The position numbers were made by a program, and so were the translations under genes. A stretch of 64,000 nucleotides of DNA. Source: Clostridium sp. MSJ-8. Lineage in GTDB: Bacteria; Bacillota; Clostridia; Clostridiales; Clostridiaceae. This document shows, piece by piece, positions 7,977-44,374 of this stretch. The notes below the pieces were generated by a model. The model did not search any database. It saw only the letters and a program-made list of their open reading frames with translations, and was not told where the DNA came from. The DNA lies in contig NZ_JAHLQH010000019.1 of assembly GCF_018918325.1 (NCBI RefSeq), forward strand, positions 1 through 64,000, written 5' to 3'. Position 1 is the first letter of the stretch. Every line of letters starts with the position of its first letter.

Positions 7977-7993
7977 AGTCAAAGTAAGTCAAA
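7977..7993 (+). promoter_or_regulatory. CtsR operator (tandem heptad)
   Basis: AGTCAAA occurs twice in direct repeat with a three-base spacer, close to the established CtsR consensus of two RGTCAAA heptads. It lies between the predicted transcription start and the ctsR ribosome binding site, so CtsR binding would block its own operon until heat or protein stress. Confidence 0.85.
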
Positions 7994-8018: not shown

Positions 8019-8474
8019 ATGGCAAGACTTTCAGATATAATAGAAAGCTTTATAAAGGATATGATTAATGAGAATGGTGATTCACAAGCACTTATTCAAC
8101 GTAATGAATTAGCAGATCAGTTTAGATGTGCACCATCTCAGATTAATTATGTATTGACAACAAGATTTACACATGAAAGAGGATATATAATTGAAAGCAG
8201 AAGAGGTGGAGGTGGCCATATTTTAATTAAACAAATAACATACAATGACGATAATATTAGAAATAAAGTCATTTATGATGCTATAGGAGACTCTATAACA
8301 TATCATAATGCTATGGCCATGATAGAGAATCTATTAGATACAAAACTTATAACTAATAGAGAATCAGAGATTATGAAAGCTGCAATTAACGATAGAACTC
8401 TTGGCAATATTGAGAATAGAAATAGAGTTCGTGCAGAAGTTTTAAAAGCAATGGTTATGCAAGTATTGATTTAA
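8019..8474 (+). CDS. ctsR: CtsR, repressor of class III stress genes
   Basis: This is a 151-residue CtsR, the heat-sensing repressor of clp genes in Firmicutes. The N-terminal winged helix-turn-helix runs through QRNELADQFRCAPSQINYVL, and the glycine-rich ESRRGGGGHI wing, which carries the temperature-sensing glycines in Bacillus, is intact. The C-terminal half forms the dimer and McsB-contact domain. The ATG at 8019 follows AGAAGGTG. It is first in a four-gene operon with an operator at 7977-7993, so it should repress itself. Normal length. Confidence 0.96.
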   Translation: MARLSDIIESFIKDMINENGDSQALIQRNELADQFRCAPSQINYVLTTRFTHERGYIIESRRGGGGHILIKQITYNDDNIRNKVIYDAIGDSITYHNAMAMIENLLDTKLITNRESEIMKAAINDRTLGNIENRNRVRAEVLKAMVMQVLI

Positions 8475-8488
8475 AAGGGGGGATTACT

Positions 8489-9043
8489 ATGTTATGCCAA
8501 AGATGTCATAAAAATGAGGCAAGTATTCATGTTGTAAAAATGGTTAATGGTAATAAATCTGATTCATGGATATGTGAAGAATGTGCAAAGGAATTATCTA
8601 AAAATCCTTTAGAAGCAATTAACCTTGACAATAAAAAAGAACCATCAATAGAGAGCATAATAGGAAGCTTTATGGGAATGTTAGATGATAAAGCTAAACC
8701 TAATAATATAGATAAAATAGATGTAGTATGTAAAAAATGTGGCACAACTTTATCTAAATTTAAATCAACAGGTACAGTTGGTTGCTTAGAATGTTATGAT
8801 AGTTTTAGAGAAGAGATAAAAAAATATCTTCAAAAACAAAAACAATATAGTGTCCATATAGGTAAAATCCCTAGTGGAGTTAAAGATAAATTTACTGAAA
8901 AGAAGAAAATTATTGAGTTAAAGGCTAAGCTTAAGAGCTATATTGAACAAGAAGAATATGAAAAAGCAGCAATAATAAGAGATCAAATATTAGAGCTAGA
9001 AGAAGCAGAGATTAAGGAGGAGAATTATGGTAAGCTTGAATAG
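8489..9043 (+). CDS. mcsA: McsA, zinc-binding partner of McsB
   Basis: This 184-residue McsA has four CxxC pairs: CQRC and CEEC near the N-terminus, CKKC and CLEC in the middle. These bind zinc. A UvrB/UvrC-type helical motif (about residues 150-178, with EEYEKAAIIRDQI) lies at the C-terminus. In Bacillus McsA activates the arginine kinase McsB and links it to CtsR and ClpC. The ATG at 8489 follows AAAGGGGGG. It overlaps mcsB by 17 bases, so the two are translationally coupled. All zinc ligands are intact, which contrasts with the degenerate McsB. Confidence 0.95.
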   Translation: MLCQRCHKNEASIHVVKMVNGNKSDSWICEECAKELSKNPLEAINLDNKKEPSIESIIGSFMGMLDDKAKPNNIDKIDVVCKKCGTTLSKFKSTGTVGCLECYDSFREEIKKYLQKQKQYSVHIGKIPSGVKDKFTEKKKIIELKAKLKSYIEQEEYEKAAIIRDQILELEEAEIKEENYGKLE

Positions 9044-10013
9044 TAGCATTATTATAAATAGTAGTGTAGAACTAGATAGAAATATAAAAAATCTTTGCTT
9101 TACTGATAAAATGAAAGCTGATTTAGCACAAGTTAACGCTAAGAATTTATCAGCTGTTATTATATCAGAATTTGGAGAAGAGAAATTTTCTAAAATAAAT
9201 TCTTGGGAACATGAATATAATTATGTTAAAGAGTTTGTTGATAAAAATATCATATCTAAAGAACTATTAGCTAGAAGAGATAAGAGTGCTTTCTTTTATA
9301 ATGATTCTGCGGTAATTATGCTAAATGGTAAAAATCACATTGGTATAAAAAGCACAGTTAATGGGCTTAATCTTGAAGAGGAATATAAAATAGTTGATGG
9401 AATAGATGATGTTGTAGAAAAGGTAGTTCCATATGCGTTTGATGAAGATTTTGGATATTTAACAGCAACTTTTGATAATATAGGAACAGGATTGACAGTT
9501 AGAGTTATTTTACATTTACCATCATTAGTTTCTGAAAAAAAGATAGCTCTATGCAAGAAAAAACTTCAAGACTTTAATACATGTTTAGAACCAATTTCAC
9601 AAGATGAGAATATTGGAGATATGTATGTTTTGAAAAATAAGTTATCTATAGGTGTTACAGAAGAAGATATACTCGAGTATATGACAAAAGCAGTAGAATA
9701 TATAGTTAACGAAGAAACTAGATATAGAATGCAATTATATACTAATAACAAATATAAAATAGAAGATAGAGTGTTCAGAGCTATAGGAATATTAAAAAAT
9801 GCACGTATGATAGATAGAAATGAGTTATTAAAATTGACATCTGATATAAGACTAGGTATAGGACTAGGTATATTAAATATAGATGTTAATATATTAAACC
9901 AAGTTATTGAACAAACAACAGACATATCAATAGAAAATAAATTAGGAAGAAGTCTAAATGAAGAAGAAAAGGACATAGAGAGAGCTAATTTGACAAGAAT
10001 TTTGTTAGGGTAA
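9027..10013 (+). CDS. mcsB: McsB homologue, probable catalytically dead arginine kinase
   Basis: Position in the operon and the well-conserved C-terminal half (KIEDRVFR, ARMIDRNE, SDIRLGIGLGI, KDIERA) identify McsB. Functional McsB phosphorylates arginines to mark proteins for ClpCP. Here the phosphagen-kinase active site has decayed. The SSRIRLARN motif reads SSVELDRN (12-19). NEEDHIRIQ reads NGKNHIGIK (100-108), losing both acidic residues and the ATP-contacting Arg. The catalytic-loop Cys is Thr148, and the Arg of GTGLR is Thr157. The later YGEG segment is missing. At 328 residues it is shorter than Bacillus McsB (363). The frame is open, so this looks like a retained pseudokinase. AAGGAGGAG precedes the ATG at 9027. 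Confidence 0.88.
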   Translation: MVSLNSSIIINSSVELDRNIKNLCFTDKMKADLAQVNAKNLSAVIISEFGEEKFSKINSWEHEYNYVKEFVDKNIISKELLARRDKSAFFYNDSAVIMLNGKNHIGIKSTVNGLNLEEEYKIVDGIDDVVEKVVPYAFDEDFGYLTATFDNIGTGLTVRVILHLPSLVSEKKIALCKKKLQDFNTCLEPISQDENIGDMYVLKNKLSIGVTEEDILEYMTKAVEYIVNEETRYRMQLYTNNKYKIEDRVFRAIGILKNARMIDRNELLKLTSDIRLGIGLGILNIDVNILNQVIEQTTDISIENKLGRSLNEEEKDIERANLTRILLG

Positions 10014-10032: not shown

Positions 10033-12480
10033 ATGCCATATGGAAGATTTACTGAAAGAGCACAAGCGGTAATTCTAGCTGCACAAAAAGAGTCACAAGA
10101 ATTTAAGCATGGATATATAGGAACTGAACATATATTATTAGGTATAATTGATGAAAATGGTTATGCAAAAGAACTTTTAAGTAAGTATGGTATAGAATAT
10201 GATAATATACGTGAAATGATAGAAGAATGTCTTGGAAGAGGAGATGTAATAATGCCTAAAGGGGAATTGTTACTTACTCCAAGGACAAAAAGATTATTTG
10301 ATGAAAGTTTTATAGAAGCAAAGAAATTAAATCATAATTATGTAAGTCCAGAACATCTTTTATTAGCATTAGTAAAAGAAGATGATGGGGTTGCTTATAC
10401 TATATTAACAAGATTGGGATTAGACTTTAAGGAACTAAAAAAAGAATTATTTATGTTCTTATCTGGCAAAGAAGATGATCAATTGAAAGAAGAAGACCGT
10501 GTGAATGATGCTATTAAAGAAACTAATACTCCAGTGCTTAATAAGTTCAGTAGAGATTTAACTCAATTAGCATTAGAAGGTGGATTAGATCCTGTTATAG
10601 GTAGAAGAGAAGAAAATGAAAGAGTTCTCGAAATTTTATGTAGAAGAATAAAAAATAATCCGTGTCTTATTGGTGAACCTGGTGTAGGTAAGACAGCTGT
10701 AGTAGAAGGATTAGCTCAGAGAATAGCAGAAGGTAACGTCCCTGAAATGTTGCAGGATAAAAGACTTGTATGTCTAGATATAAGTTCTATGGTTGCAGGA
10801 GCAAAGTATAGAGGTGAATTTGAAGATAGATTGAAGAAGGTTATGGAAGAGATAAAAGGTAACCCTGATATAATTGTGTTCATAGATGAAATTCATACTA
10901 TAATTGGTGCAGGTGGTGCAGAAGGAGCAATAGATGCATCTAATATACTTAAACCAGCACTTGCAAGAGGAGAAATTCAATGTATAGGAGCAACTACAAT
11001 AGATGAATACAGGAAACATATAGAAAAGGATTCTGCATTAGAGAGAAGATTCCAACCTATAATGGTGGGAGAACCATCTAAAGAGGAAACTTATGAGATG
11101 TTAAAAGGTTTAAGAGATAAATATGAAGCACATCATAAGGTTAAGATTACTGATGAAGCACTTAGAGCAGCAGTTGATATGTCAGATAGGTATATAACAG
11201 ATAGATTTATGCCTGATAAAGCTATTGATTTAATAGATGAAGCAGCAGCCAAGATAAGAATTCAAAGTTCAGTTACTCCGCCTGATTTAAAAGAATTACA
11301 AAATGAAATGGAACATATGAATAAAGAAAAAGAAGAAGCAATAGGACTTCAAGATTTTGAGAAGGCAGCTAGACTTAGAGATAGAGAAAAGGAACTTAAA
11401 GATAAATTAGATAATATGAAACTTCAATGGAGTAATGCTAATTTAGGGCAATCATTAGAAGTTGGACCGGAGAATATAGCTCAAGTTGTCTCTATGTGGA
11501 CTAAGGTTCCAGTGGATAAATTAACAGAAAAAGAAAGTGATAAACTATTAAAATTAGAAGAAATTTTGCATAAGAGGGTAATAGGACAAGAAGATGCAAT
11601 AACAGCTGTTTCAAGAGCAGTTAGAAGAGCTAGAGTGGGTATTAGAGATCCTAGAAGACCTATAGGAAGTTTTATATTTTTAGGCCCAACAGGAGTTGGA
11701 AAAACAGAGCTATGTAAGGCATTAGCAGAAGCTATGTTTCTAGATGAAAATAGCATAATAAGAATAGATATGTCAGAGTATATGGAGAAATATAGTGTAT
11801 CTAAATTAATAGGTGCACCTCCAGGATATGTAGGGTACGAGGAAGGTGGACAGTTAACAGAAGCAGTTAGAAGAAAACCTTATTCAGTTGTTTTGTTAGA
11901 CGAAGTAGAAAAAGCACATCCAGATGTGTTTAATATTCTTCTTCAGATTATGGAAGATGGTAGATTGACAGATGGAAAAGGAAAATTAGTTAACTTTAAG
12001 AATACAATAATTATTATGACTTCTAATGTAGGAGCACATATGATAAAAAAACAAAAATCTATGGGCTTTAATGTTAATGAAGATAATGATGATAGCTATG
12101 AGAGAATGAGAGAAAATATAATGCAAGAATTAAAGGAAAGATTTAAACCTGAATTCTTAAATAGAATAGATGAAACAATTGTATTCCATGAATTAACTAA
12201 AGAAAATATGATTAAAATAGTTGATTTAATGTTAGATTCTCTTAGAGAAAGATTAAAAGAAAATCAAATAGATATTGAATTCAATGATAAGTGTAAAGAA
12301 TTCTTATTAGATAAAGGTATTGATCTTAAATATGGCGCACGTCCATTAAGGAGAACTATAACCAAAGAATTAGAAGATAAATTAAGTGAAGAGTTATTAT
12401 TAGGAAATGTAAAGATTGGAGATTCAGTAGTAGCATCTGCTAATAATGATGGAATTGAATTTGAAGAAATAAATAAATAA
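10033..12480 (+). CDS. clpC: ClpC AAA+ unfoldase
   Basis: This is an 815-residue ClpC, the ATP-driven unfoldase that feeds proteins to ClpP. The N-domain has two Clp repeats; Glu32 (GTEH) and Glu107 (SPEH) match the acidic residues that bind phospho-arginine in Bacillus ClpC. The first AAA+ domain has Walker A GEPGVGKT at 214-221 and Walker B VFIDEIH. A middle domain with a UvrB/C-like helix (FEKAARLRDREK) follows, where McsB or MecA would dock. The second AAA+ domain has GPTGVGKT and VVLLDEVEKAH. The ClpP-binding loop appears as KSMGFN. The ATG at 10033 follows AGGAGGT. It is last in the ctsR operon. Confidence 0.96.
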   Translation: MPYGRFTERAQAVILAAQKESQEFKHGYIGTEHILLGIIDENGYAKELLSKYGIEYDNIREMIEECLGRGDVIMPKGELLLTPRTKRLFDESFIEAKKLNHNYVSPEHLLLALVKEDDGVAYTILTRLGLDFKELKKELFMFLSGKEDDQLKEEDRVNDAIKETNTPVLNKFSRDLTQLALEGGLDPVIGRREENERVLEILCRRIKNNPCLIGEPGVGKTAVVEGLAQRIAEGNVPEMLQDKRLVCLDISSMVAGAKYRGEFEDRLKKVMEEIKGNPDIIVFIDEIHTIIGAGGAEGAIDASNILKPALARGEIQCIGATTIDEYRKHIEKDSALERRFQPIMVGEPSKEETYEMLKGLRDKYEAHHKVKITDEALRAAVDMSDRYITDRFMPDKAIDLIDEAAAKIRIQSSVTPPDLKELQNEMEHMNKEKEEAIGLQDFEKAARLRDREKELKDKLDNMKLQWSNANLGQSLEVGPENIAQVVSMWTKVPVDKLTEKESDKLLKLEEILHKRVIGQEDAITAVSRAVRRARVGIRDPRRPIGSFIFLGPTGVGKTELCKALAEAMFLDENSIIRIDMSEYMEKYSVSKLIGAPPGYVGYEEGGQLTEAVRRKPYSVVLLDEVEKAHPDVFNILLQIMEDGRLTDGKGKLVNFKNTIIIMTSNVGAHMIKKQKSMGFNVNEDNDDSYERMRENIMQELKERFKPEFLNRIDETIVFHELTKENMIKIVDLMLDSLRERLKENQIDIEFNDKCKEFLLDKGIDLKYGARPLRRTITKELEDKLSEELLLGNVKIGDSVVASANNDGIEFEEINK

Positions 12481-44218: not shown

Positions 44219-44248
44219 GTAATAGTTGCAGGTCAAAACAACGATGAA

Positions 44249-44374
44249 TCAAGAGGTTGCCGGACTTCCGGGGAATTCTTGATGAGTATGTCTGGATCTA
44301 GAATCCGACGACAGTACTTCTTCTGGTGTAGAGTGAGTACGAAACACCAGGAACAGTTTATGAAGAATACTGTT
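44249..44374 (+). promoter_or_regulatory. four-hairpin structured leader of the S10 operon
   Basis: Four stems follow one another. TCAAGA/TCTTGA (44249-44282) encloses CCGG-ACTT-CCGG. AGTA-TGTC pairs with GACA-G-TACT (44285-44318) around GGAT/ATCC. CTGGTGT/ACACCAG spans 44323-44350. AACAGT/ACTGTT spans 44352-44374. No T-run follows, so control of translation rather than termination is more likely. It does not look like the gammaproteobacterial S10 leader that binds L4. I cannot assign it to a known family. Confidence 0.65.

What the first reader, a model, noticed from the sequence alone, without database searches (positions are those of the whole stretch)
9027..10013. McsB homologue with a wrecked kinase site kept inside an intact ctsR operon
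Seen: compared with Bacillus McsB as I know it, NEEDHIRI reads NGKNHIGI (100-107), the catalytic-loop Cys is Thr148, the Arg of GTGLR is Thr157, SSRIRLARN reads SSVELDRN and the YGEG loop is gone. These positions bind ATP or catalyse arginine phosphorylation. Yet the frame is open, the C-terminal domain is well conserved (EDRVFR, SDIRLGIGLGI, KDIERA), McsA keeps all its cysteines, and ClpC keeps Glu32 and Glu107 of the phospho-arginine pockets. Inference: McsB may now be a pseudokinase adaptor that delivers CtsR or other clients to ClpC without phosphorylation, or the kinase role has moved elsewhere.
Basis: partly seen in the sequence, partly recalled or inferred. Interest (0 to 1): 0.75.

Follow-up and report, generated by a model that had tools for sequence, protein, structure and literature searches.

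The report
Dead protein-arginine kinase kept by clostridia
This bacterium keeps a protein-tagging enzyme, McsB, whose working parts have all been replaced; its clostridial relatives show the same pattern, mostly without the matching tag remover, which suggests they gave up this kind of protein tagging yet kept the protein and its partner for another job.

Summary

All 41 McsBs read in its genus are broken: 40 keep at most 3 of 8, one keeps 6. In 146 family genomes, 105 of 105 with an intact site have a YwlE-type arginine phosphatase; 16 of 17 with a broken site lack it, and 21 of 22 without McsB lack it. Two broken McsBs found in other families also lack it. On a ClpC tree the broken state arose at least three times.

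Broken genes are under purifying selection (median dN/dS 0.12). In 59 genus genomes McsA and McsB occur in the same 37; where both are missing, clpC follows ctsR directly in 16 of 16 loci read.

Best reading: arginine phosphorylation was lost, while McsA-McsB was kept for a kinase-independent role (thiol-gated handling of CtsR and/or a ClpC adaptor). Loss of catalysis is strongly supported; the retained role is inferred.

The parts
7978..7993 (+). CtsR operator-like repeat GTCAAAGTAAGTCAAA, 25 bases before ctsR
   Evidence: only exact match in the window; 0.03 expected by shuffling; at up to 2 mismatches the count is not above chance; consensus recalled
8019..8474 (+). ctsR, class III heat-shock repressor
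   Evidence: PF05848 and PF17727
8489..9043 (+). mcsA, zinc-finger partner of McsB; eight zinc-finger cysteines and UVR motif kept
   Evidence: NF053706 at 135.9 bits, below its cut-off of 210; PF02151; alignment
9027..10013 (+). mcsB, predicted pseudokinase, overlaps mcsA by 17 bases
   Evidence: PF00217 at 118 bits; 0 of 8 catalytic residues; McsB fold
9060..9071 (+). residues 12-15 SSVE, in place of SRIR (R29 and R31 lost)
   Evidence: alignment
9324..9344 (+). residues 100-106 NGKNHIG, in place of NEEDHIR (E121 and R125 lost)
   Evidence: alignment
9432..9458 (+). residues 136-144 YAFDEDFGY, counterpart of the McsA-contacting loop Y147-Y153 of S. aureus McsB, kept
   Evidence: loop named in PMC12467219 (passages); G143 and Y144 kept in 98-100% of 49 broken McsBs, A137 in 78%
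9468..9497 (+). residues 148-157 TFDNIGTGLT, in place of CPTNVGTGLR (C167 and R176 lost)
   Evidence: alignment
9588..9605 (+). residues 188-193 EPISQD, in place of RGxYGE (R207 and E212 lost, lid altered)
   Evidence: alignment; pLDDT below 50 at 192-195
9723..10010 (+). dimerisation and pArg-receptor domain, conserved; receptor Arg337 is Lys (K315), Asp338 kept (D316)
   Evidence: conservation counts
10033..12480 (+). clpC; Glu32 and Glu107 present

Best explanation
The gene encodes an McsB pseudokinase. In this genus (by named matches, Clostridium in the narrow sense) and in several other lineages, protein-arginine phosphorylation was given up: the writer's active site eroded and in most genomes the eraser YwlE is gone. 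McsB is still made from the ctsR operon beside McsA and is kept by selection for a job without phosphate transfer. The most likely job is McsA-gated partner switching: McsA holds McsB through its zinc finger; when its thiols are oxidised, or stress diverts the complex, McsB docks through its conserved dimerisation domain onto CtsR and/or ClpC and removes or hands over the client. Shown here: loss of the site, its extent, the link to YwlE, co-inheritance with McsA, purifying selection in relatives, predicted fold. Inferred: absence of activity, the partner switching, the clients.
For: 0 of 8 catalytic residues in the window; 41 of 41 genus McsBs broken. In B. subtilis each of R29K, R31K, R34K, R125K, R176K, R207K, R337K abolished the kinase signal (PMC7235348 section 7); of these arginines the window keeps only R34. 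YwlE tracks the McsB site in 146 family genomes: 105/105, 16/17, 21/22, and 2 of 2 broken McsBs in other families lack it. McsA and McsB present in the same 37 of 59 genus genomes and deleted together (16 of 16 loci). dN/dS 0.117 in broken mcsB. Dimerisation-part columns conserved at 90% or more: 14 against 15 in intact McsBs; kinase part 29 against 65. Published kinase-independent roles: C167S McsB leaves MgsR half-life at 12.3 min against 17.7 min in the deletion (passages); oxidised McsA frees McsB to take CtsR off DNA while kinase action stops (review passages).
Against: No biochemistry. The same review says kinase activity is needed for the ClpC adaptor role in B. subtilis. 22 of 59 genus genomes have deleted mcsA and mcsB, so the role is dispensable. 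Five of 37 McsB-bearing genus genomes keep a YwlE-type gene, four of them with altered P-loops but the catalytic Asp present. The McsB-YwlE link rests on 3 independent pairs on well-supported branches (3 of 3, p 0.25). Selection could not be measured for the window gene itself.
Confidence: 0.7

Rival explanations
1. The protein is still an arginine kinase that uses other residues.
For: The fold is kept; five genus genomes with a broken site retain a YwlE-type phosphatase; ClpC keeps its pArg-pocket glutamates.
Against: The phosphate-binding arginines, the catalytic Glu pair and the Cys are gone together; different species fill the same columns with different residues, with 3 to 11 separate losses per residue on the best tree; single changes at these arginines abolish the signal in B. 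subtilis; no phosphatase match in this genome.
Confidence: 0.04
2. The arginine-kinase role has moved to another protein of the genome.
For: CtsR, its operator and ClpC are intact.
Against: One PF00217 match in the genome and no PF01451 match. A kinase of unknown family cannot be excluded.
Confidence: 0.04
3. mcsB is a slowly decaying relic, kept for a time because its frame couples translation of mcsA and clpC; the protein itself does nothing.
For: mcsA and mcsB overlap; 22 of 59 genus genomes lack both; one family genome (G298) holds only a fragment with a stop; conserved kinase-part columns fall from 65 to 29.
Against: dN/dS 0.071-0.205 in 17 broken pairs, in both domains; McsA is kept whenever McsB is and lost with it; full-length frames in 39 of the 41 genus genomes as reported by the search (G042 is split over contigs and the window gene is 328 aa); the dimerisation part is as conserved as in intact McsBs.
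Confidence: 0.12
4. McsB survives only as a structural mount for McsA, and McsA (zinc or thiol sensing, UVR contact with ClpC) is the acting partner.
For: Exact co-inheritance, 96-100% kept zinc cysteines beside broken McsBs, conserved McsA-facing loop.
Against: The dimerisation domain, not only the McsA-facing loop, is conserved. Overlaps with the best explanation.
Confidence: 0.1

Closest known systems
McsB protein-arginine kinase of Bacillus, Geobacillus and Staphylococcus (PDB 6tv6, 6fh1-6fh3, 8gqd)
   Different: 0 of 8 catalytic residues; pArg-receptor Arg replaced by Lys; lid changed; no YwlE match in the genome
B. subtilis McsB C167S, a laboratory kinase-dead mutant
   Same: Works like it in the proposed sense: kinase lost while part of the MgsR-degradation effect remains (PMC7235348 passages)
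   Different: Here the state is natural, involves all eight residues, is genus-wide, and mostly goes with loss of the phosphatase
McsA-McsB thiol partner switch on CtsR in B. subtilis
   Same: The parts it needs (McsA cysteines, McsB, CtsR) are present; kinase action is not used in it (PMC5506225 passages)
   Different: Untested here; some lineages with broken McsB have no CtsR
Bacterial Ser/Thr pseudokinases (PMC12599244, abstract in search listing only)
   Same: Kinase fold kept without a catalytic site
   Different: Those have a different fold; this is a phosphagen-kinase fold

Membership tests
McsB protein-arginine kinase (as an enzyme) | Phosphagen-kinase domain plus dimerisation domain | tested here: met
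McsB protein-arginine kinase (as an enzyme) | Catalytic residues R29, R31, E121, R125, C167, R176, R207, E212 | tested here: not met
   0 of 8
McsB protein-arginine kinase (as an enzyme) | pArg-receptor R337 and D338 | tested here: not met
   reads KD; R337K abolishes the signal in B. subtilis. Also changed in 50 of 105 intact family McsBs, so not specific to broken ones
McsB protein-arginine kinase (as an enzyme) | Score above a curated NCBIfam McsB cut-off | tested here: not met
   NF002194 266.7 of 385; NF053707 204.8 of 500
McsB protein-arginine kinase (as an enzyme) | ctsR-mcsA-mcsB-clpC operon | tested here: met
McsB protein-arginine kinase (as an enzyme) | Cognate phosphatase YwlE in the genome | tested here: not met
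   0 PF01451 matches; 11 of 14 control genomes match
McsB protein-arginine kinase (as an enzyme) | Arginine kinase activity | not testable with these tools
   needs purified protein
Pseudokinase | Kinase fold without catalytic residues | tested here: met
Pseudokinase | Frame kept under purifying selection | tested here: met
   met for 17 pairs of broken relatives; not measurable for the window gene itself
Pseudokinase | A non-catalytic function | not testable with these tools
   inferred from selection and co-inheritance with McsA

The most novel reading that the evidence does not exclude
Protein-arginine phosphorylation as a system has been abandoned several times among these Gram-positive bacteria while its kinase-activator pair was kept. 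The conserved core function of McsA-McsB would then be a phosphorylation-free, thiol-gated switch or adaptor of ClpC (and of CtsR where present), with the kinase chemistry an optional layer that can be dropped together with its eraser.
Probability: 0.42. Interest if true: 0.85.

Novelty: new variant of a known kind. Interest (0 to 1): 0.72.

Why it matters
McsB is known for marking proteins with phosphoarginine for ClpCP, and databases name clostridial relatives 'protein arginine kinase' (source names, among them C. beijerinckii and C. saccharobutylicum). Here a genus keeps the protein without the chemistry and mostly without the eraser. If true, annotations across an industrially used genus need correcting, phosphoarginine should be absent there, and nature provides a separation of the kinase role from the long-debated adaptor and redox roles of McsA-McsB. 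It also gives a simple genomic rule to test elsewhere: YwlE follows the McsB active site, not the mcsB gene.

Tried and rejected
Second McsB or moved kinase: only the window gene matches PF00217. Intact residues elsewhere in the fold: sequence and structure alignments run straight through the site. dN/dS contrast between domains: not found. ClpC Glu32/Glu107 as proof of a live pArg pathway: neutral. CtsR as the only client: set aside because of genomes with mcsA-mcsB-clpC and no CtsR. CtsR changes linked to the broken state: 0 of 46 strongly conserved columns. McsA stimulation residue R96 as a second marker of lost kinase: not usable, its column is not conserved at 70% among intact McsAs. The single-protein scan of genome contigs found no relative; the alignment scan did. 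Columns for R176 and E212 were off by one and corrected; only corrected counts are used.

Literature: eight searches listed no paper on a catalytically dead McsB in clostridia. Only open-licence papers are held, and the two main structure papers (10.1038/s41589-019-0265-y, 10.1038/s41589-024-01720-3) are not, so novelty is not proven.

Rows set apart: G298 (fragment with a stop) and G220 (contig end, four of eight positions readable) are outside the intact/broken counts and the conservation counts. G042 is split over two contigs; only the piece with six of the eight positions was read. dN/dS medians use pairs at 78-98.5% protein identity with dS 0.05-1.5 (17 broken, 46 intact pairs for the whole gene); pairs share species. 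A first run with YN00 failed for several pairs; its usable values agree (0.099 broken, 0.053 intact).

Bias found on re-check: my first phylum controls were the 30 best-scoring matches plus one (31 of 31 intact). I then read the 20 lowest-scoring of the rest: 15 are 8 of 8, 3 are 7 of 8 (Cys to Trp only), 2 are broken. So 51 of 112 were read; 61 were not.

Control oddity: the 14-genome control gave no PF00217 match and a CtsR match only in Lactococcus lactis, although B. subtilis is among the controls and has both genes (recalled; 6tv6 is its McsB). Absence calls by family search therefore need care; for 16 of the 22 McsB-less genomes of the 59-genome sample I read the operon DNA.

Full report
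The gene and its surroundings. The window holds an ordinary-looking class III heat-shock operon: ctsR 8019-8474, mcsA 8489-9043, mcsB 9027-10013, clpC 10033-12480 (families). An exact CtsR operator-like repeat lies at 7978-7993; 0.03 such matches are expected by shuffling. mcsB overlaps mcsA by 17 bases. The genome (2.82 Mb, 54 contigs, 99% complete) has one PF00217 match, this gene, and no PF01451 match, the family that includes the arginine phosphatase YwlE.

A genus-wide state. The genus sample holds 68 genomes; 41 have McsB. I read the site in all 41: 12 keep 0 of 8, 10 keep 1, 10 keep 2, 8 keep 3, and one (G038) keeps 6, having lost R29 and R31. Named records with identical McsB are Clostridium vincentii, C. 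paraputrificum, C. sardiniense, C. chromiireducens and C. beijerinckii HUN142. C. luticellarii, C. magnum, C. ljungdahlii, C. tetanomorphum, Hathewaya massiliensis and Haloimpatiens lingqiaonensis have 8 of 8 and match genomes outside the genus. Of 112 other phylum genomes with a PF00217 match I read 51: the 30 best-scoring, one of the same class, and the 20 lowest-scoring of the rest. 46 are 8 of 8, three are 7 of 8 (Cys to Trp only), and two are broken, G129 with 3 and G087 with 4 of 8.

Writer and eraser go together. In 146 genomes of the family: intact McsB with YwlE 105, without 0; broken without YwlE 16, with 1; McsB absent without YwlE 21, with 1; one fragment without; one contig-end piece with. 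Two of the 22 McsB-less genomes (G315, G317) are known by elimination, as one search did not list them. YwlE was called from PF01451 matches of at least 75 bits spanning 384 bases or more. The signature (CTGNTCRS, then DPF or DPY) was read in 12 of the 30 best loci and in 20 of 20 further loci of intact genomes; the other 18 of the 30 best are CxGNICRS phosphatases, and each of those 18 genomes lists a second match of 76 to 101 bits, of which I read one. So 32 of the 105 were read directly; the rest go by score and span. The broken-site exception is G003 (C. paraputrificum), whose YwlE has APYG where others have DPYG or DPFG. The three 7-of-8 McsBs outside the family sit with a CTGNTCRS phosphatase, whereas the only PF01451 match of G129 and of G087 is of the CHGNICRS type: the rule held in two lineages that I had not used to form it.

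Results that weaken it. In the denser genus sample 5 of 37 McsB-bearing genomes keep a YwlE-type gene (G003, G023, G028, G035, G039); in the last four the P-loop reads CTANTCRS or CTVNTCRS but the catalytic Asp is present, and G017 keeps such a gene with no McsB. G031, G042 and G026 have CHGNICRS phosphatases, which I did not count as YwlE.

More than one origin. On a ClpC tree of 56 sequences the broken state needs 4 changes, at least 3 forced by well-supported branches: the window's genus and g123 lie in one unresolved part of the tree, G227 of g148 pairs with intact G254, and g134 lies far from both. The tool warns of long branches in g123. G227 (6 of 8; C167 to N, R207 to K) lacks YwlE while G254 has 8 of 8 and YwlE. 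The three independent pairs on starred branches agree with YwlE (3 of 3; p 0.25, too few to be significant). G129 and G087 belong to two other families and were not on this tree. Residue by residue, Dollo losses number 3 to 11 on the best tree, 2 to 11 with weak forks collapsed.

The protein is kept. Over 17 pairs of broken mcsB the median dN/dS is 0.117 (kinase part 0.113, dimerisation part 0.120), against 0.079 over 46 intact pairs. Columns conserved at 90% or more number 29 of 228 in the kinase part of the 41 broken genus proteins against 65 in 105 intact family proteins, and 14 against 15 of 96 in the dimerisation part. Among columns conserved in 136 intact proteins, the 49 broken ones keep C167 in 2%, R29 and R31 in 4%, R207 in 8%, R176 in 14%, R125 in 31%, E212 in 43% and E121 in 49%, but the 12 such columns from residue 230 to the end in 88 to 100%. 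The 136 include the best-scoring phylum controls, not the low-scoring ones read later. The window gene itself could not be tested, as no DNA of its 80% relative P0002 was in reach.

McsA follows McsB. In 59 genus genomes McsA and McsB occur in the same 37; CtsR is in 55. In 16 of 16 loci read, of 22 McsB-less genomes, clpC follows ctsR directly, so the pair was lost as a unit. The 49 different McsAs found beside broken McsBs keep the eight zinc cysteines at 96 to 100%. No CtsR match was found in G213, G248, G202 and G240, which keep mcsA, broken mcsB and clpC, nor in four g151 genomes with intact McsB.

Mechanism. Published B. subtilis work offers two kinase-independent roles: an adaptor effect of McsB C167S on MgsR (passages), and, under thiol stress, oxidation of McsA that frees McsB to take CtsR off DNA while preventing kinase action (review passages). 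The parts kept here (McsA cysteines, the McsA-facing loop described in PMC12467219 (passages), the dimerisation domain) are those such roles would need; the parts lost are those of phosphate transfer. I therefore favour a phosphorylation-free, McsA-gated switch or adaptor. Against it, the same review says kinase activity is needed for the ClpC adaptor role in B. subtilis, and the species that deleted the pair show that the role can be lost.

Novelty. Eight literature searches (listed under Tried and rejected) showed no report of a catalytically dead McsB clade; subscription papers could not be read. Filed as a new variant of a known kind: McsB by descent and fold, not by its catalytic definition.

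Noticed in passing
G213, G248 (L394, L395); G202, G240 (L396, L399); G242 (L411): mcsA-mcsB-clpC kept with no CtsR match in the genome, so the pair outlives its repressor; in G242 McsB is intact and the McsA frame is only 133 aa.
   Followed up: partly
L443 (G065), L445 (G151), L447 (G112): Three McsBs of one family (f10) differ from the canonical site only by Cys167 to Trp and keep a YwlE-type phosphatase.
   Followed up: partly
L432 (G129) and L433 (G087): Broken McsBs in two further families whose only low-molecular-weight phosphatase match is of the CHGNICRS type.
   Followed up: partly
L065-L069 (G017, G035, G028, G023, G039): YwlE-like phosphatases with CTANTCRS or CTVNTCRS P-loops in genomes with broken or absent McsB: perhaps a new substrate.
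   Followed up: no
family sample, McsB C-terminus: The pArg-receptor pair R337-D338 is RD in only 55 of 105 catalytically intact family McsBs, so receptor loss is commoner than kinase loss.
   Followed up: no
The genome search control set: PF00217 matched none of the 14 control genomes and CtsR only Lactococcus lactis, although B. subtilis is among the controls and has both genes.
   Followed up: no
window 44236-44311: S10-Clostridia ribosomal protein leader just above its gathering score (36.1 against 35.1 bits).
   Followed up: no
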